Part shown: one piece after another, positions 4,495 through 64,000 of the stretch
How positions within the stretch are numbered: the stretch's first letter is position 1
Layout: each line of letters begins with the position of its first letter
Notes under the pieces: model-generated
Seen by the model: only the letters and a program-made list of their open reading frames with translations
Told to the model about the DNA's origin: nothing
Databases searched by the model: none
Program-made: the position numbers and the translations under genes
Assembly (NCBI RefSeq): GCF_000341105.1
Contig: NZ_ANBB01000004.1
Coordinates: forward strand, 1 to 64,000
Source: Nocardiopsis potens DSM 45234
GTDB taxonomy: Bacteria > Actinomycetota > Actinomycetes > Streptosporangiales > Streptosporangiaceae
Reading direction: 5' to 3'
DNA: 64,000 nt

Positions 4495-4556
4495 GGTGGT
4501 CTCGGCGCCGCCGCCGTCCCGAAGCCGGTCGGGACGGCGGCGGCGCCGAGACCACC
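4495..4556. terminator. Perfect 26-bp inverted repeat between kinase and regulator genes
   Basis: Arms at 4495-4520 and 4531-4556 are exact reverse complements, with a 10-nt loop whose ends add two more pairs. There is no T-tract. It sits between the stop of the sensor kinase (4591) and the start of the regulator (4403), so it may attenuate regulator transcription or protect the upstream mRNA end. Confidence 0.7.
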
Positions 4557-4590
4557 GGGAAGGGCCGGCCGGCGCCGGCCGGCGCCGGGG

Positions 4591-5919
4591 TCAGCAGCGG
4601 TCGTGCAGCGGGATGCGGGCGCTGACCCGGAAGCCGCCGCCCGGCAGCGGGCCGGTGTCCAGGTCCCCGCCGAACATGGCGGTCCGCTCGCGCATGCCGA
4701 GGATGCCGTGGCCGGGTTCGTCGGCGTCCCCGGCCCGCCGGTCGGGGGCGGGGCGGCGGCCGGCGCCGTCGTCGGTGACCTCCACCGCGATCTCGCCGGG
4801 GCGGTAGTCCAGCCCGACCCGGGCGCGGGCGCCCGGTCCGGCGTGCTTGAGCACGTTGGTCAGCGACTCCTGGACCACCCGGTAGACGGTCAGGCCCTGC
4901 ACCGGGGGGAGGTCGCGGGCGGCGCCGGAGACGCGGAGCTCGGCGTCCACCCCGGCGTCGCGCAGGTGGCCCAGGAGCGCGTCGATGTCGGCGACGCCGG
5001 GCTGGGGGCTGCGCGCGGCGCCGTCGTCGCGGTCCGGCTCCGACATGCGCAGCACGCCCACGATCCGGCGCATCTCGGCGAGGGTCTCCCGCCCGGTCCG
5101 CTCGATCTCGGCCAGCGCCTGCTCGGCCCGCTCCGGGGAGCGGCCGATGACCCGGCGGCCCGCGGTGGCCTGCACTGTCATCACGCTGACGTGGTGGGCG
5201 ACCACGTCGTGCAGCTCGCGGGCGATGCGGGAGCGCTCCTCGGCGAGCACGGCGCGGGCGTGGGCGTCCCGGGCGCGCTCGACCCGGCGGGCGTGCTCGC
5301 GGACCTCGGCGGTGTCGAAGGCGCGCAGCCGCACCAGGCGCCCCAGCCACCAGACGAAGGCCATGGAGCCCAGCGCGAAGGCGTACGGCGCCCACCAGGG
5401 CCGGGCCGGGTCGGGCGGCGCCGAGGCGGTGTGCAGCGCGGCGGCGTCGACGGCCCCGGCCAGTGCGATGGAGGCCAGGGCGCGGGCCAGCGGCAGGTAG
5501 CGCCCGATGGAGTAGGAGGCGATCACGATGCCGGTGGAGGCGGCGCCCCAGGCGAAGGCGCCGGCCTGCCCGGCCGCGGTGCCGCCCGCGATGAGCAGGA
5601 GGAGGACGGTGAGGGGGTGGCTGCGGCGCAGCGGCAGGAGCAGCGCCAGTGCGGCGCCGGCGGCGTGCCCGGCCGCGTCGCGGGGCCAGGCGGAGGCCCA
5701 TTCGGGGGTGCCGGCGGCGGTCAGCAGGACGACGGAGTTCAGCGCGGCCGGCCCCAGCACGACGAGGGCGTCGGTGATCCGGTCGCGGCGGCGCTCGGGG
5801 AGGCGCGGCCGGGCCGCGGGCAGCAGGGCGGCCAGGCTCCGGACCGCGGTCCGGGCGCGGGCCCGGGGCCGCCGCCGTCGCCCGGGTTCAGGAGGCGTCG
5901 TCGAGGCGGTTTCGGTCAC
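4591..5919 (-). CDS. Sensor histidine kinase, HisKA_3 family
   Basis: The protein has 442 residues with a membrane part of several hydrophobic helices (about 48-195). A HisKA_3 dimerisation helix carries ERSRIARELHDVVAHHVSV, with the phospho-acceptor His near residue 237. A HATPase_c domain follows (VVQESLTNVLKHAG N-box; DDGAGRRP and GHGILGMRERTAMFGG). It pairs with the response regulator directly downstream. The GTG at 5919 is preceded by a TAGTTT box six bases upstream, so the mRNA may be leaderless. The signal sensed is unknown. Confidence 0.93.
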   Translation of the reverse strand: MTETASTTPPEPGRRRRPRARARTAVRSLAALLPAARPRLPERRRDRITDALVVLGPAALNSVVLLTAAGTPEWASAWPRDAAGHAAGAALALLLPLRRSHPLTVLLLLIAGGTAAGQAGAFAWGAASTGIVIASYSIGRYLPLARALASIALAGAVDAAALHTASAPPDPARPWWAPYAFALGSMAFVWWLGRLVRLRAFDTAEVREHARRVERARDAHARAVLAEERSRIARELHDVVAHHVSVMTVQATAGRRVIGRSPERAEQALAEIERTGRETLAEMRRIVGVLRMSEPDRDDGAARSPQPGVADIDALLGHLRDAGVDAELRVSGAARDLPPVQGLTVYRVVQESLTNVLKHAGPGARARVGLDYRPGEIAVEVTDDGAGRRPAPDRRAGDADEPGHGILGMRERTAMFGGDLDTGPLPGGGFRVSARIPLHDRC

Positions 5920-31826: not shown

Positions 31827-32717
31827 ATGCCCTCCTCCGTCTCCCTCCTCGTCAACCCCGCCTCCGGAAGCGGCCGCGCCGCGGTGGCCGCCGGCCGGGT
31901 GCTCACCGGGCTGCGCGCGCTGGGCGCCGAGCCGACGGTGCTGATCGGCCGCTCCGCCGCGGACAGCGCCAGACTGGCCCGGGAGGCGGTGCGGAAGAGG
32001 CCGGACGCGCTGGTCGCGGTAGGCGGCGACGGCATGGTGCACACCGCGCTGCAGGCGGTCGCCGGGACCGACGTCCCGCTGGGCGTGGTGCCCGCCGGGA
32101 CCGGCAACGACATCGCCCGCGAGCTGGGCATCGGCCGCTCGGCCACCGAGGCCGCGGAGCGGATCGCGCGCGGCTACACCGTCCCCGCCGACACCGTGCA
32201 CTGCACCGGCCGCGGCGTCGACCTGCACTACCTCAGCGTGCTGGCCTGCGGGTTCGACTCCCGGGTGAACGAGCGGGTGAACGGCTTCTCCGTCCCCATG
32301 GGCCGGGCCGGCTACCTGGTCGGCCTCGCCGCCGAGCTGCGCTCCTTCCGCCCCATCCCGTACCGGATCGAGGTGGACGGCGAGGTCCTGGAGGCCGAGG
32401 GGATGCTCGCCGCGGTCGGCAACACCCGCTGCTACGGCGGCGGCATGAAGGTCTGCCCCGGCGCGCGCTACGACGACGGGCTGCTCGAAGTGGTGTTCGT
32501 GCACGCCGTCGCGGTCTCCGACTTCGTCCGGTTCTTCCCGCGGGTGTTCGGCGGCACCCACACCGAGCTGGACGAGGTGACGGTGCTGCGCGGCCGCCGC
32601 GTCACCATCACCACCGGTGGCGGCACCCCGGTGGCCGGCTACGCCGACGGCGAGCGCGTCGGCGATACCCCGCTCACCTGCGAGATCGCCCCGAAGTCGG
32701 TGCGCGTGCTGATGTAG
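31827..32717 (+). CDS. Diacylglycerol kinase-like lipid kinase
   Basis: The 296-residue protein belongs to the DAGK_cat/YegS family: SLLVNPASGSGRAAV at the N-terminus, the nucleotide motif VAVGGDGMVHTAL (GGDGM instead of the commoner GGDGT) and PLGVVPAGTGNDIARELG. The C-terminal beta domain has NTRCYGGGMKVCPGARYDDG. It likely phosphorylates diacylglycerol or a related lipid at the inner membrane face. The position between tatC and helY agrees with actinobacterial order. Confidence 0.9.
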   Translation: MPSSVSLLVNPASGSGRAAVAAGRVLTGLRALGAEPTVLIGRSAADSARLAREAVRKRPDALVAVGGDGMVHTALQAVAGTDVPLGVVPAGTGNDIARELGIGRSATEAAERIARGYTVPADTVHCTGRGVDLHYLSVLACGFDSRVNERVNGFSVPMGRAGYLVGLAAELRSFRPIPYRIEVDGEVLEAEGMLAAVGNTRCYGGGMKVCPGARYDDGLLEVVFVHAVAVSDFVRFFPRVFGGTHTELDEVTVLRGRRVTITTGGGTPVAGYADGERVGDTPLTCEIAPKSVRVLM

Positions 32718-32732
32718 CCGCGGCCGGTCCCC

Positions 32733-32760
32733 CGTTGATCTTGGCGCTGTCGCGGTCTCG
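32733..32760 (+). repeat. Left terminal inverted repeat of the island (REP-like)
   Basis: This 28-mer, containing GATCTTGGCG and GCGGTCTCG, matches the reverse complement of 34275-34302 at 22 positions. The next shared element, GTTGCAAC, lies at the same 23-base distance in both ends. Confidence 0.75.
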
Positions 32761-32844
32761 CCCCGCCTTGTCGCCGAGTGGTCGTTGCAACGAGGAACTC
32801 GGGGAGGGGCGAGGGAAGGGAGGTCCCCGACCGGGTGCGGCCTC

Positions 32845-33290
32845 CCGCGGGGTGGCGGTTCAGGCGGGCGGCGACGGTGTAGGTAGGGGCGGGGCGGAGG
32901 CGGTCGCCCGGGCGCCGGGCCCCACGGGGTGAGGGTTCAGGCGGGCGGCGAGGGCGGCGGTGGGCACCGGCCGGTCGGTCTGGCGCGGCGCCTCACGGGG
33001 CGGGGGTTCAGACGGGCGGCGACGGTGAAGGTAGGGCCGGGGTACGGGAGTCGCCCGGGCGCCGGGCCCCACGGGGCGAAGGTCCAAGCGGGCGGCGAGG
33101 GCGGCGGTGGGGGACCGGCCGGTCGGTCGGGCGCGGCGCCCCACGGAGCGGAGGTCAAGACGGGCGGCGACGGCGGGAGTAGGGGCGTGGCGGGGGCGGT
33201 CGCCCGGGTGTCGGGCCCCACGGGGTGGGGGTTCAAGCGGGCGGCGAAGGCGGGGAGGGGCACCGGCCGGTCGGTCCGGTGCGGCAGAGC
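32845..33290 (+). repeat. Left array: six direct repeats of 71-77 bp
   Basis: A core close to GGTTCAAGCGGGCGGCGA starts at 32857, 32934, 33005, 33081, 33153 and 33230. Spacing alternates 77, 71, 76, 72, 77. Two intervening sequences alternate: one holds GTCGCCCGGGCGCCGGGC, the other ACCGGCCGGTCGGTC. Each core is preceded by CCACGGGG. Confidence 0.9.
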
Positions 33291-33799
33291 AGGGAGGGGC
33301 GGCCGGGGCAGGGTGGGGTGGCGGGGTGGCCGTTCCCGCGTCGCCCAGGCGCCGGGGCCGGCCGCCCGTGAAACCGCTGCCCCTTCCCGACCTGGGTGAA
33401 TACGCAGAGTGATGGCGGTGTGGGGTGCCCTGCGCACCGCGAGAGCACCCCGGTGATTCCCGGGCGCGCATCCTGGGCCGGATCGGCCCCCGGGAGGCCC
33501 GGATCGCCTTGATCGAGCCGGTGTTCGGGGGTTCGAGCCGTCCGGAAGGCCGGGATGCAGGGGGCTGGAACCCGGGGAGAGGCGGCGCGGGGACGGGATG
33601 TCGCTTTTGTTCTCCCGGGGAGCCCTGTTTGGCCACTCTGGGTGAGCGGTGAGGGGGTGGTGGGGGCCTGGGGGCTTACTACTCGCTGGTAGATGTAATC
33701 GGGGTGCTCTCGCGGTGCGCAAGGCGCCCCCGCCCCTGCCTGTTCCCTACCGAGAACCCGGCATAGGGGATAAGGCCACCCTGCTCGGCTCGGGCGGAC

Positions 33800-34235
33800 C
33801 CACCCCCACCGCCGGGGCGCCGCGCCCGGGCGGCCGCCTCCGCCCCGTTCCCACCGCTGCCGTCGCCGCCCGCTTGAACCTCCGCTCCGCGGGGCGCCGC
33901 GCCCGGGCGGCCGCCTCCGCCCCGCTCCCACCGCTGCCGTCGCCGCCGGTTTGAGCCTTCGCCCCGTGGGGCGCCGCGCCGAACCGACCGGCCGGTCCCC
34001 CTCCCCGCCGTCGCCGCCTGCTTGAACCTCCGCTCTGCGAGGCGCCGCGCTCGGGTGGGGCGCCGGGCCCGGTTCCTGCCTGCGCCGTCGCCGCTCGTCT
34101 TGACCTTCGCTCCGCGGGGCGCCGCACCCGACCGACTGACCGGCAGGTCGCCCTCCCCGCCGTCGCCGCCCGCTTGAATCTGCACCCCGTGGGGTGCCGC
34201 GCCCGACCGGCCGGCCGGTCCCCTCCTGTCCTCTG
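33800..34235 (-). repeat. Right array: five inverted copies of the same repeat
   Basis: The reverse complement of the left-array core occurs at 33861-33880, 33938-33957, 34009-34028, 34086-34105 and 34161-34180. Spacing is 77, 71, 77, 75. The outermost core lies 64 bases from the GTTGCAAC octamer, against 65 on the left, so the arms are homologous throughout. Confidence 0.9.
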
Positions 34236-34274
34236 GTACGCGGTGTTGCAACGGACACCGGAGAGCACCGGCTC

Positions 34275-34302
34275 TGAGACCGCAACGGCGCCGAGGCCAA
34301 CG
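34275..34302 (-). repeat. Right terminal inverted repeat of the island
   Basis: It contains GAGACCGCAACGGCGCCGAG, the counterpart of the left end. Only 67 bases separate it from the helY start codon. Confidence 0.75.
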
Positions 34303-34356
34303 CTGAGGGGCGCCAACGCCGAGGGGCGCGGATTCCGGGACGTCGCTCCGACGCCA

Positions 34357-34362
34357 TAGGCT
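34357..34362 (+). promoter_or_regulatory. -10 box of a likely leaderless promoter (helY)
   Basis: TAGGCT is followed by seven bases (GGAGGCG) and the ATG at 34370. The GGAGG is too close to the ATG to be a normal ribosome binding site. Confidence 0.45.
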
Positions 34363-34369
34363 GGAGGCG

Positions 34370-37228
34370 ATGAATAACCACGCCGCCTCCTACGCCGCCT
34401 TCCGCCGGCGCCAGTCCCAGACGAGCACCGTGATCGAGGAGTTCAAGGGGCTCTACGGCTTCGACTTCGACCCGTTCCAGGTGCGGGCGTGCAAGGCGCT
34501 CGAAGACGGCGAGGGGGTCCTCGTCGCCGCGCCCACCGGGTCGGGCAAGACCATCGTCGGCGAGTTCGCCGTCCACCTGGCCCTGCGCGACGGCGCGAAG
34601 TGCTTCTACACCACGCCGATCAAGGCGCTGTCCAACCAGAAGTACAACGACCTCGTCGCCCGCTACGGGGCGGAGAAGGTCGGCCTGCTCACCGGGGACA
34701 ACAGCGTCAACGGCGAGGCGCCGGTGGTGGTGATGACCACCGAGGTGCTGCGCAACATGCTCTACGCGGGCTCGCAGACCCTCTCCGGCCTGGCGTTCGT
34801 GGTGATGGACGAGGTCCACTACCTCGCCGACCGGTTCCGCGGCGCGGTGTGGGAGGAGGTCATCATCCACCTCCCCGAGTCGGTGCGGATCGCCGCGCTG
34901 TCGGCCACGGTCAGCAACGCCGAGGAGTTCGGCGAGTGGCTGCAGGAGGTCCGCGGCGACACCACCGTCATCGTGGACGAGAAGCGGCCGGTGCCGCTCT
35001 GGCAGCACGTCATGGTCGGCCGCAGGCTGCACGACCTGTTCGTGCCGGTCGAGGGCGCCGACGCCGGCGAGGACGGGGAGCCCTCGGGCAACGGGCGCAA
35101 GCGCAGCCGCAAGCGCGACCGGGACCGCAGCGGCCTGGCCAAACCGGTCGAGATGTCGGTCGGCGGCGAGAAGATGCTGATCAACCCCAGGCTGATGCGG
35201 ATGGCGGTGGAGGACGACCGGGTCACCCAGCTGGCGCACCGCCGCCGCCACCCGCAGTCCCGCGCGCGCAGCGCCCCGCGCCCGCGCACCAAGCACTTCC
35301 CGCCCAGCAGGGTGCAGATCGTCGACGAGCTGGACCGGGACGGCCTGCTGCCCGCGATCACCTTCATCTTCAGCCGCGCCGGCTGCGAGGCCGCGGTGCG
35401 CGAGTGCCTGGCCGCGGGCCTGGTCCTCACCACCGACGAGGAGGCCGCGGAGATCCGCGAGTACGCGGAGCGGCAGTGCGCCGACATCCCGCAGGCCGAC
35501 CTCGCCGTGCTCGGCTACCACGACTGGCTGCGCGCGCTGACCTGCGGCGTCGCCGCGCACCACGCGGGCCTGCTCCCGGCGTTCAAGGAGATCGTGGAGA
35601 AGCTGTTCTCCCGGGGCCTGATCCGCGCCGTGTTCGCCACCGAGACGCTGGCGCTGGGCATCAACATGCCCGCCCGCACCGTGGTCATCGAGAAGCTGGA
35701 CAAGTGGAACGGGGAGACCCACGCCCCGCTCACCGCCGGCGAGTACACCCAGCTCACCGGGCGCGCCGGGCGGCGCGGCATCGACGTCGAGGGCCACGCG
35801 GTGGTGATCTGGCAGGCCGGCATCGACCCGGAGGCGGTCGCCGGGCTGGCCAGCACCCGGACCTACCCGCTGGACTCCAGCTTCCAGCCGTCCTACAACA
35901 TGGCGGTCAACCTGGTCGGCCAGGTCGGCCGGGAGCGCAGCCGCAACATGCTGGAGGCGTCCTTCGCCCAGTTCCAGGCCGACCGCGCGGTGGTCGGCCT
36001 GGTCAAGCAGCTGCGCAAGCACGAGGAGGCGCTGGCCGGCTACGCCGAGGCGGCCGACTGCCACCTGGGCGACTTCATGGAGTACGCCGCGCTGCGCAGG
36101 CGGCTCAGCGACCGGGAGAACGAGCAGTCCAAGCGGCGCGGGGCGCGTCGCCGGGACGAGGCGGTGGAGTCGCTGGGCCGGCTGCGCCCCGGCGACGTGA
36201 TCCGGATCCCGGCCGGCCGGCACACCGGTTTCGCCGTGGTGCTCGACCCGGGGCTGCGCGACGCGCTGCCCGCGCCGCTGGTGCTCACGGTGGACAAGCA
36301 GGTCAAGCGGGTCAACGCGGCCGACTTCCCGGTCCCGGTGGAGCCGGCCGGGCGGCTGCGCATCCCCAAGGGGTTCTCGGCGCGCTCGGCCAAGTCGAGG
36401 CAGGACCTCGCGTCCACGCTGCGCAACAAGATCAACGACGGGACGGTCGACACCCGGGTGGTCAAGGCGCGGCACGGCGCCAAGGAGGAGGACCCGGAGA
36501 TCGCCCGGCTGCGCGCGGAGATGAAGGCGCACCCCTGCCACGGCTGCGCCGACCGGGAGGAGCACGCCCGCTGGGCCGAGCGGTACTTCCGGCTGAAGAA
36601 GGAGACCGAGGGGCTGCGCCGCCGGGTGGAGGGGCGCTCGCACGTCATCGCGCGCACCTTCGACCGGGTGTGCGGGGTGCTGCAGTCGCTGGGCTACCTC
36701 GCCCCGGAGGACGGCGACACGGTCACCCCGGAGGGCGCGGTGCTCGCCCGGATCTACTCCGAGCTGGACCTGCTGGTCGCCGAGTCGCTCCGGCGCGGCC
36801 TGTGGGACGACCTCACCCCGCAGGAGCTGGCCTCCTGCGTGGCGTCGATGGTGTACGAGTCGCGCCGGAACGACGACCCCTACCCGCGGGTGCCCGAGGG
36901 CCGGGTGGCGGACGTGCTGACCGAGATGGAGCGGCTCTGGGGCGAGCTGCAGGAGGTGGAGCGGGACAACAGGGTCTCCTTCCTGCGCCGCCCGGACATG
37001 GGCTTCGTGTGGCTGGCGCACCGCTGGGCGCGCGGCGACCGGCTCGACCGGATCCTCGCCGACGCCGACATGCCGGCCGGCGACTTCGTCCGCACCGCCA
37101 AGCAGCTGATCGACCTGCTGGAGCAGATCGCCGCCGCGGCGCCGGACGACGGCGGGGTCCGCTCCACCGCCCGCAAGGCGGTGGACCTGGTCCGGCGGGG
37201 CGTGGTCGCCTACACCTCGGTGGGCTGA
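34370..37228 (+). CDS. helY: Ski2-like DEAD/H-box helicase HelY
   Basis: The 952-residue superfamily 2 helicase resembles mycobacterial HelY and eukaryotic Ski2/Mtr4. It has Walker A AAPTGSGKT (residues 53-61), motif II DEVH (147-150), SAT in AALSATVSNAEEF and motif VI QLTGRAGRRGID. A basic, low-complexity insertion (about 225-310) lies between the RecA domains, and a long helical C-terminal DSHCT-type region follows. It probably remodels structured RNA. The start lies just after the repeat island. Confidence 0.94.
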   Translation: MNNHAASYAAFRRRQSQTSTVIEEFKGLYGFDFDPFQVRACKALEDGEGVLVAAPTGSGKTIVGEFAVHLALRDGAKCFYTTPIKALSNQKYNDLVARYGAEKVGLLTGDNSVNGEAPVVVMTTEVLRNMLYAGSQTLSGLAFVVMDEVHYLADRFRGAVWEEVIIHLPESVRIAALSATVSNAEEFGEWLQEVRGDTTVIVDEKRPVPLWQHVMVGRRLHDLFVPVEGADAGEDGEPSGNGRKRSRKRDRDRSGLAKPVEMSVGGEKMLINPRLMRMAVEDDRVTQLAHRRRHPQSRARSAPRPRTKHFPPSRVQIVDELDRDGLLPAITFIFSRAGCEAAVRECLAAGLVLTTDEEAAEIREYAERQCADIPQADLAVLGYHDWLRALTCGVAAHHAGLLPAFKEIVEKLFSRGLIRAVFATETLALGINMPARTVVIEKLDKWNGETHAPLTAGEYTQLTGRAGRRGIDVEGHAVVIWQAGIDPEAVAGLASTRTYPLDSSFQPSYNMAVNLVGQVGRERSRNMLEASFAQFQADRAVVGLVKQLRKHEEALAGYAEAADCHLGDFMEYAALRRRLSDRENEQSKRRGARRRDEAVESLGRLRPGDVIRIPAGRHTGFAVVLDPGLRDALPAPLVLTVDKQVKRVNAADFPVPVEPAGRLRIPKGFSARSAKSRQDLASTLRNKINDGTVDTRVVKARHGAKEEDPEIARLRAEMKAHPCHGCADREEHARWAERYFRLKKETEGLRRRVEGRSHVIARTFDRVCGVLQSLGYLAPEDGDTVTPEGAVLARIYSELDLLVAESLRRGLWDDLTPQELASCVASMVYESRRNDDPYPRVPEGRVADVLTEMERLWGELQEVERDNRVSFLRRPDMGFVWLAHRWARGDRLDRILADADMPAGDFVRTAKQLIDLLEQIAAAAPDDGGVRSTARKAVDLVRRGVVAYTSVG

Positions 37229-63855: not shown

Positions 63856-63917
63856 GCACCGGGCGAAGGGGGAGCGGGGCCTCGATCGCCGATGGGAGAA
63901 GCCCCGGCCCGGGCGGG

Positions 63918-63973
63918 GATCTTGACGTCGCGGCCCCATCGGAGCGCTCCGATGGGGCCGCGACGTCAAGATC
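63918..63973. repeat. 56-bp perfect palindrome, REP-like
   Basis: Two 28-base arms meet at AGCGCT without a loop. The outer part GATCTTGACGTCGCGG resembles the palindrome at 51677 and the island ends. It lies 62 bases after the glycosyltransferase stop and may also terminate transcription. Confidence 0.8.
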
Positions 63974-64000
63974 ACCGGAGGAGGGGCCGGACAGGGGCCG

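What the first reader, a model, noticed from the sequence alone, without database searches (positions are those of the whole stretch)
32733..34302. Symmetric, non-coding repeat island with two opposed arrays
Seen directly: six direct units (cores at 32857, 32934, 33005, 33081, 33153, 33230) face five inverted units (33861, 33938, 34009, 34086, 34161). Spacing alternates between about 77 and 71 bp in both arms. Two spacer types alternate, one with a GCCCGGGC palindrome and one with ACCGGCCGGT. GTTGCAAC octamers stand exactly 23 bases inside 28-bp inverted ends, and 65 or 64 bases from the outermost core. A 21-bp inner repeat frames a 249-bp centre. No transposase, integrase or plausible gene is inside. 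Such ordered symmetry suggests a DNA-structure or protein-binding locus, or a very large structured RNA. I know of no described class with this design.
Basis: partly seen in the sequence, partly recalled or inferred. Interest (0 to 1): 0.88.

Follow-up and report, generated by a model that had tools for sequence, protein, structure and literature searches.

The report
Bacterial fold-back repeat, over 100 copies
What looked like one odd symmetric stretch of non-coding DNA is a copy of a roughly 1.4-kb mobile-looking repeat, present more than 100 times in this Nocardiopsis-group genome, built like the fold-back transposons of insects, and new to us in bacteria.

Summary
The element (opposed arrays of 71/77-bp units around a conserved ~0.5-kb core) has 123 core matches in this 6.9-Mb genome and at least 38 listed places, more diverged, in one congener. 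It was not found in the other four species of the genus or the rest of 341 family genomes. A match to Nocardiopsis halophila placed the genus. At the window site the congener has 67 bp where this genome has 1,618. Of 13 element sites in one syntenic region 2 are shared and 11 private to one species. Near-identical cores with rearranged arms mark recent copying. No gene, Rfam match or RNA covariation was found. Best reading: a non-autonomous fold-back-type mobile element whose arms are arrays of possible ends; common variants in its copies are in linkage equilibrium, which implies frequent exchange. The enzyme that moves it was not found.

The parts
32724..34341 (.). whole stretch present in this genome and absent at the orthologous site of congener G004
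   Evidence: G004 has 67 bp between the two aligned flanks, this genome 1,618 bp; sequences read
32733..32765 (+). left half of a target palindrome of the TGATCTTGACG...CGTCAAGATCA family
   Evidence: same sequence class occurs as solitary ~66-bp palindromes elsewhere; flanks the E ends of other copies
32766..32826 (+). end module E2 (CCTTGTCG...GTTGCAACGAGGAACTCGGGGA...); limits by eye
   Evidence: 13 matches in this genome, 1 in G004, 0 in four congeners
32827..33292 (+). left arm: six direct units, spacing 71/77 alternating
33255..33784 (+). core region as aligned in 57 copies picked by their 26-mer; asymmetric, gives the element a direction (overlaps the last spacer of the left arm)
   Evidence: its 316-bp middle found independently in 40 of 40 scored places
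33422..33452 (+). left arm of the 31-bp inner inverted repeat
   Evidence: I21
33675..33700 (+). most conserved 26-mer CTTACTACTCGCTGGTAGATGTAATC, an interrupted dyad
   Evidence: 123 matches in the genome with up to 3 mismatches
33700..33730 (-). right arm of the 31-bp inner inverted repeat
   Evidence: I21
33803..34215 (-). right arm: five inverted units, with a degenerate stretch inside of them
   Evidence: (D1)
34222..34269 (-). end module E1 (GGTG..TCCGTTGCAACACCGC..ACCAGAGGACAGGAGG); limits by eye
   Evidence: 25 matches in this genome, 3 in G004, 0 in four congeners
34270..34302 (-). right half of the target palindrome

Best explanation
It is one copy of a non-autonomous mobile element with fold-back architecture. 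Two long inverted arms, each a tandem array of 71/77-bp units, flank a conserved non-coding core of about 0.5 kb. SHOWN: high copy number in one species, fewer and older copies in one congener, none seen in four others; most compared sites occupied in one species only; some copies with palindrome halves on the outside; near-identical cores with rearranged arms; common variants among the copies of one genome in near-complete linkage equilibrium. INFERRED: the private sites are gains by transposition; the copies exchange short tracts; a recombinase or transposase encoded elsewhere binds the units, each of which can serve as a terminal inverted repeat. Which unit is used, together with slippage and recombination inside the arrays, sets arm length, and E1/E2 are original ends where still present. 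The core, above all its 26-mer dyad, carries a signal needed for propagation. The mover is unknown.
For: Copy number: 123 core 26-mers, reversed control 0; 40 of 40 scored centres 86-100% identical over at least 302 of 316 bp, of 272 candidates. Narrow range: 2 of 341 family genomes, this one and G004. At the window G004 has 67 bp against 1,618. In the stretch syntenic with C27: 2 sites shared, 9 private to this genome, 2 private to G004. No arm hit in about 198 kb fetched from the other four species. Recent copying in G004: cores 98.6-99.1% identical, and one pair identical over eleven 60-bp windows while its arm windows are 62-98% identical in register; in that pair 12 of 12 units of one copy match a unit of the other at 95-100%, mostly at shifted positions. 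E ends only in the two element-bearing species of six, with palindrome halves outside 25 of 27 E ends by eye. A minimal copy: E2, one unit, E1. The outermost unit tends to start in phase: 88 of 154 outer ends keep at most about 6 bp of array upstream, against 201 of 638 internal units. Linkage equilibrium: mean r2 0.233 at 1-5 bp, 0.029 at 6-15 bp, 0.018-0.045 beyond, where 0.017 is expected without linkage; 25 multi-base two-allele blocks, 13 of 226 pairs beyond 60 bp with p<0.05.
Against: No transposase or integrase could be linked to it. 43 of 61 copies show neither E1 nor E2 at the threshold used, and no clean target-site duplication was defined, so termini are not proved. The in-phase excess at outer ends is moderate, since 201 of 638 internal units pass the same test. 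Many 'empty' sites are not clean: between the flanks G004 has 193, 1,607, 1,691, about 4,800, 76, 350, 678 and 191 bp at eight of the nine private sites, and the spacer at the window differs in sequence, so the state before insertion is only approximate. Copies differ 17% pairwise although at least some were gained after the split from G004; I explain this by spread of already mixed copies plus exchange, but mutagenic copying would fit as well. In other G004 pairs with similar cores (L180/L182, L180/433.8k) a part of the arm units match at only 54-77%.
Confidence: 0.62

Rival explanations
1. Host-maintained chromosomal sites: binding arrays for a nucleoid, gyrase or condensin-type protein, with spacing of about 7 helical turns (14 for a unit pair). 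Their spread would be a by-product of recombination, with the function being DNA organisation or relief of supercoiling downstream of genes.
For: Regular 71/77-bp phase: 536 of 638 internal unit pairs are 70, 71, 76 or 77 bp apart (both species); uneven site conservation, variance 24.9 against mean 4.3 changes per G/C site; more convergent intergenic sites than background, 19 of 58 against 35 of 186, p=0.03; in G004 7 of 19 are convergent.
Against: Present in 2 of 6 species of the genus and 2 of 341 genomes of the family; 11 of 13 compared sites private to one species; the convergence bias is weak and rests on a crude gene caller; the largest class of sites is co-directional (31 of 58).
Confidence: 0.15
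2. Homing-like spread of the core: arrays are the older landing sites and only the core moves or is gene-converted between them.
For: Cores up to identical between sites whose arm windows are 62-98% identical in register; at a site shared by both species the flanks match at 84-100%, the centre at only 67-82%; the core of a second shared copy groups with cores of its own genome.
Against: At that shared site the arms match little better than the centre (about 69-94% of ungapped columns). Whole elements are missing at orthologous sites, so complete units are gained; in the best pair the arms share units at 95-100%, so arms travel too; only one array-only stretch inside a contig was seen in 372 kb (C27 123.8k, by arm hits alone).
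Confidence: 0.12
3. A large structured RNA gene family, possibly spread by reverse transcription.
For: Long inverted arms would fold in RNA; the core is conserved and asymmetric; mosaic copies could come from template switching.
Against: No covariation beyond shuffles; part of the 31-bp inner repeat is changed on its right side in 20 of 61 copies (block 521; 4 copies match neither form); no Rfam match at gathering score.
Confidence: 0.05
4. REP/REPIN-type repeats moved by a RAYT (Y1 transposase).
For: Extragenic palindromic repeats in opposed pairs; CTAC..GTAG dyad in the core.
Against: Neither element-bearing genome has a Y1_Tnp match at E<=0.001, while all four element-free species have one, two of them short and weak.
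Confidence: 0.02

Closest known systems
Foldback and Galileo-type transposons of Drosophila (Galileo: P superfamily; PMC3573991 abstract and passages read, PMC3688188 abstract read)
   Same: Long inverted arms with internal tandem repeats of varying number, a middle region, deletion derivatives and short forms, rearrangement and exchange mainly affecting the arms, repeated binding sites in the arms (shown for Galileo by footprinting and sequence, per its abstract).
   Different: Bacterial host; no coding copy found; arms are almost wholly tandem units; no target duplication of fixed length established; sequence relation not tested and not expected.
BrickBuilt, a minisatellite-bearing MITE of Porphyromonas gingivalis (PMC4596501, abstract read)
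   Same: Non-coding, intergenic, dispersed bacterial element with a tandem array inside and distinct end subunits.
   Different: 23-nt units in one array, 19 copies in one strain, small inverted ends; the abstract mentions no opposed arrays and no conserved asymmetric core.
REPINs and tagged REPs (PMC3116915, PMC3733652, abstracts read)
   Same: Dispersed extragenic palindromic repeats in opposed arrangement, often downstream of genes.
   Different: REPs are 20-40 bp against roughly 1.4 kb here; RAYT-linked, while no Y1 transposase match is present here.
IS elements that insert into REP palindromes (PMC1525189, abstract read)
   Same: Use of small extragenic palindromes as insertion targets.
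   Different: Those are coding insertion sequences; this element is non-coding.
Tandem repeats of constant size in Bacillus (PMC8161180, abstract read)
   Same: Bacterial non-coding arrays with constant unit length and variable sequence.
   Different: 52 or 20-21-nt units; no inverted symmetry or core is mentioned in the abstract.

Membership tests
Fold-back (Foldback/Galileo-like) transposable element | long inverted arms made of tandem sub-repeats around a middle region | tested here: met
Fold-back (Foldback/Galileo-like) transposable element | variable unit number between copies and between the arms of one copy | tested here: met
Fold-back (Foldback/Galileo-like) transposable element | mobility: occupied and empty orthologous sites | tested here: met
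   not all empty sites are clean
Fold-back (Foldback/Galileo-like) transposable element | target-site duplication of fixed length | tested here: inconclusive
   spacers differ between species; a 2-3 bp overlap at palindrome centres was read by eye
Fold-back (Foldback/Galileo-like) transposable element | autonomous relative with a transposase | tested here: inconclusive
   only an ISL3-type insertion beside one core; whole gene content not compared
MITE (non-autonomous inverted-repeat element) | terminal inverted repeats shared with an insertion sequence of the same genome | tested here: inconclusive
   at the E1/E2 places that I fetched and read I saw arms or remnants of the element, no IS with these ends; not every place was read
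MITE (non-autonomous inverted-repeat element) | small size, usually below about 600 bp (recalled) | tested here: not met
   about 0.9-1.9 kb by array limits for copies not cut by contig ends or an IS; the mini copy is smaller
REP/REPIN with RAYT | Y1-type transposase in the genome | tested here: not met
Structured non-coding RNA | covarying base pairs above background | tested here: not met
Known Rfam family | match at the family's gathering score | tested here: not met
   4 matches in 32300-34500, all far below gathering score

The most novel reading that the evidence does not exclude
A bacterial fold-back transposon class in which each arm is an array of alternative ends recognised by an unknown trans-acting enzyme, and in which more than 100 copies in one genome recombine so freely that they behave like a sexual population (linkage equilibrium at tens of bp).
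Probability: 0.35. Interest if true: 0.78.

Novelty: new variant of a known kind. Interest (0 to 1): 0.66.

Why it matters
Large non-coding dispersed repeats are, as far as I recall, rare in bacteria; this family takes up of the order of 2% of the genome (estimate: 123 copies, of about 0.9-1.7 kb). It would extend the fold-back design, known to me only from eukaryotes, to bacteria. It offers a natural system for how long palindromes survive, spread and exchange sequence in a bacterial chromosome. It also helps explain broken assemblies: at least 15 contig ends lie within 450 bp of a core motif (positions, contig lengths).

Tried and rejected
Rejected: coding repeat (unit spacing not a multiple of 3, frame-shifting indels, no Pfam match); structured RNA; RAYT-moved REPIN; assembly artefact (complete copies in a 3-contig genome); plasmid or phage origin (no blastn match at E<=1e-5 in 72,556 plasmid and 50,697 phage records; no exact match of an 18-mer in viral contigs).

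Led nowhere: the genome-contig scan with a core pattern found 0, but the pattern used the minority C at its third base and near records may be left out, so it says little about range. In one search only the two best candidates per genome were scored. The ISL3-type insertion sequence beside one shared copy (L269, L274) looked like a possible autonomous version; it has its own GGCTCTTCG ends and reads as a passenger. The strand of the 26-mer (63 against 60) shows no bias. Literature searches for a bacterial fold-back element or repeats in Nocardiopsis found none: (8 of 10 searches; open-licence library only).

Dropped rows and weak spots: the 60 fetched copies of this genome were picked by their 26-mer, so that all carry it is no finding. 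In one search, 3 of 61 copies near contig ends were left out, 57 of 61 sequences were given (three at contig ends and L083 left out), 3 of 61 were unclassified; copies matching neither allele of a block were set aside. The unit finder over-counts (9 instead of 6 in the window's left arm) and the output was cut. The gene caller is crude and misjudged at least one site (L182, by eye). In some searches some 'outermost' units still have array sequence upstream, and both species are pooled.

Full report
WHAT WAS CHECKED. The window holds six direct and five inverted units at the places named, with alternating 77/71-bp spacing, two spacer types, an inner inverted repeat (31 bp, 247 bp apart) and two GTTGCAAC octamers. 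The right octamer is 22, not 23, bases inside its end. The neighbours are a YegS-type lipid kinase upstream (31827-32717) and a DEAD-box/DSHCT helicase downstream (34370-37228), both on the + strand.

IT IS A FAMILY, NOT A LOCUS. A search of the window's own genome (G000, 6.9 Mb, 133 contigs) with the 1,570-bp element gave 40 scored places of about 0.85 kb up to full length, of 853 candidates. The 316-bp centre gave 40 of 40 scored matches at 86-100% identity (the 100% being the window itself), of 272 candidates. An 18-mer from the inner repeat has 192 matches, reversed control 0. The most conserved 26-mer, CTTACTACTCGCTGGTAGATGTAATC, has 123 matches with up to 3 mismatches, control 0, against 4 in congener G004 and 0 in four other species of the genus. 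In the family it occurs in 2 of 341 genomes, and the whole element reaches E<=1e-15 in the same 2 of 341, two candidates per genome scored. G004 has at least 38 listed places of the element, most with a diverged core (list cut, 40 candidates scored). Plasmid, phage and viral collections gave nothing. The genus was placed through a lookup of the lipid kinase: the best named hit is Nocardiopsis halophila DSM 44494, contig_102, whose length (59,318 bp) equals that of contig C102 of congener G005. The species of the window itself was not named.

ANATOMY ACROSS COPIES. I fetched 60 copies of this genome with up to 8 kb of surroundings, picked by their 26-mer, and added the window. Unit numbers vary between copies and between the arms of one copy (the finder over-counts). 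Of 638 internal neighbours in both species 536 are 77, 71, 76 or 70 bp apart. 58 cores align over about 0.5 kb with mean pairwise identity 0.83 (0.74-0.93). Changes from the consensus are 1,600 transitions and 703 transversions, and very uneven between sites. The 26-mer and several A/T-containing stretches hardly vary.

MOBILITY. At the window site G004 aligns at 91% and 96% on the two sides but has 67 bp where this genome has 1,618 (window 32724-34341). The other four species have 96-214 bp (stretches read). Across contig C27 (206,754 bp), syntenic with G004 C1 229-437 kb, I put together. Elements at C27 0.5-0.8k and 107.9-109.6k have a G004 counterpart. Those at 21.6k, 69.8k, 95.0k, 123.8k (array remnant), 138.3k, 150.9k, 174.1k, 192.0k and 206.5k (at the contig end) do not. 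Two in G004 (394.7k, 433.8k) have none here. Thus 2 of 13 sites are shared. The gaps left in G004 at the private sites range from 76 bp to about 4.8 kb, so not all are clean empty sites. About 198 kb fetched from the four other species show no arm. One more shared copy (L103/L171) and one interrupted shared copy (L269/L274) lie outside that region. So the family existed before the two species parted, and most compared sites were gained later; precise loss is possible but less likely, since no copy was seen in the four other species.

RECENT COPYING AND ARM TURNOVER. In G004, core pairs are 98.6-99.1% identical (L182 with the copy at 433.8k and with L180), and L178 and L179 are identical over eleven 60-bp windows, while their arm windows drop to 62-98%. 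In the L178/L179 pair 12 of 12 units of L178 match a unit of L179 at 95-100%, mostly shifted by whole units. In the L180 pairs some units match well and others at only 54-77%. So arms travel with the core, at least in one pair, and are quickly rearranged by unit gain, loss and exchange.

ENDS AND TARGETS. 18 of 61 copies show at least one end module, E1 or E2 (both: E1/E2 6, E2/E1 2 including the window, E1/E1 1; one end only 9), 43 show none. E1 has 25 and E2 13 matches in this genome, 3 and 1 in G004, 0 in the four element-free species. Outside 25 of 27 E ends, by eye, lie halves of a palindrome, TGATCTTGACG...CGTCAAGATCA, which also occurs alone as a ~66-bp near-perfect palindrome in this genome, in G004 and, in a variant, in element-free G002. 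In copies without E ends, arrays often begin in phase at the start of a unit: over all copies, 88 of 154 outer ends have no more than about 6 bp of array upstream, against 201 of 638 internal units. This is moderate support for each unit being able to act as an end. A minimal copy, E2 plus one unit plus E1 without core, lies at C9 76.4-76.6 kb.

EXCHANGE BETWEEN COPIES. Among 61 cores in this genome, 67 sites have a second allele at 20% or more. Their mean r2 falls from 0.233 at 1-5 bp to 0.029 at 6-15 bp and stays at 0.018-0.045 beyond, where 1/(n-1) is 0.017; all four combinations occur in 99-100% of pairs beyond 5 bp. Point mutation hot spots could mimic this. Therefore I used 25 blocks whose two alleles differ at 3 bases within 10: beyond 60 bp 13 of 226 pairs reach p<0.05, about the chance rate, and 211 of 226 show all four combinations; nearer, 7 of 46 pairs reach p<0.05. 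Several blocks have both alleles in G004 too. So old variants appear shuffled between copies over short distances. Gene conversion is the usual cause; template switching or repair templated by the opposite arm would also fit. This may also explain why copies gained after the species split differ by 17%.

WHAT IT IS NOT. Not coding. Not an RNA with covarying pairs: 97.0% of cells paired against 97.0% in shuffles, 10 doubly changed pairs against 10.6 (fold). The slid controls pair less (44-54%), as expected for a structure derived from the same consensus. Not RAYT-driven: no Y1_Tnp match in either element-bearing genome, one each in the four others. The transposase beside one copy belongs to an ISL3-type insertion with its own ends.

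POSITION. By a crude gene caller, 58 classified sites of 61 are 31 co-directional, 19 convergent and 8 divergent, against 104, 35 and 47 of 186 background gaps above 100 bp; convergent excess p=0.03, divergent deficit p=0.07. In G004 19 sites are 9, 7 and 3. This fits insertion between genes with loss from promoter regions better than a site-specific host role.

HOW IT MOST LIKELY WORKS. Shown: amplification, sites private to one species, recent copying, arm turnover, linkage equilibrium. Inferred: an enzyme supplied in trans binds the units, pairs two units from opposite arms as ends, and moves whatever lies between; hairpin-prone targets such as the small palindromes are favoured. Galileo of Drosophila is the best parallel for mode of life: long internally repetitive inverted arms, structural dynamism mainly in them, short derivatives (PMC3573991, abstract and passages read), and several transposase binding sites in the arms (PMC3688188, abstract read). 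Among bacterial elements BrickBuilt, an array inside a MITE, is nearest of those I saw (PMC4596501, abstract read). Membership in any named family is not claimed.

VERDICT. A real, unusual, lineage-specific mobile-looking repeat with a design that I could not find described in bacteria (searches; open-licence papers only). The mechanism stays partly inferred because the mover is unknown.

Noticed in passing
window about 63912-63978 (minus strand, starting at 63978): A solitary ~66-bp near-perfect palindrome of the TGATCTTGACG...CGTCAAGATCA family, the same family whose halves flank the element; other solitary copies at C27 48.2k, 74.5k, 181.0k, 187.9k.
   Followed up: partly
L269 about 4513-5888 and L176/L274 (shared site in both species): An ISL3-type insertion sequence with GGCTCTTCG ends sits directly after the conserved core end GGGATAAGG of one old copy, followed by a mycothiol-S-transferase/DinB-like gene and a fragment of the same IS. 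The transposase frame is open here and split in two frames in G004.
   Followed up: partly
L103 (G000 C68) and L171 (G004 C1): An orthologous complete element in both species, but its core in this genome groups with other cores of this genome in the tree, which hints at replacement by exchange.
   Followed up: partly
L073 and L115 (G000 C19 about 22.5k and 43.7k): Two copies 21 kb apart share 108 bp of outer flank at 93.5% in opposite orientation, possibly a trace of recombination between copies.
   Followed up: no
G004 elements (L177, L181, L183, copies at 394.7k and 433.8k): G004 has its own recurrent end module containing forms of CGATCACCCGCGATCCCGACAGCC next to homologous arms, so ends and cores differ by species while arms stay alike.
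   Followed up: no
G004 C1 about 4.87-6.03 Mb: No element was listed in the last 1.16 Mb of the largest G004 contig, although copies are spread over the rest; the listing was cut and only 40 candidates were scored.
   Followed up: no
G001, G002, G003, G005: All four element-free species carry a Y1_Tnp match (two strong, two short and weak), the two element-bearing species none.
   Followed up: no
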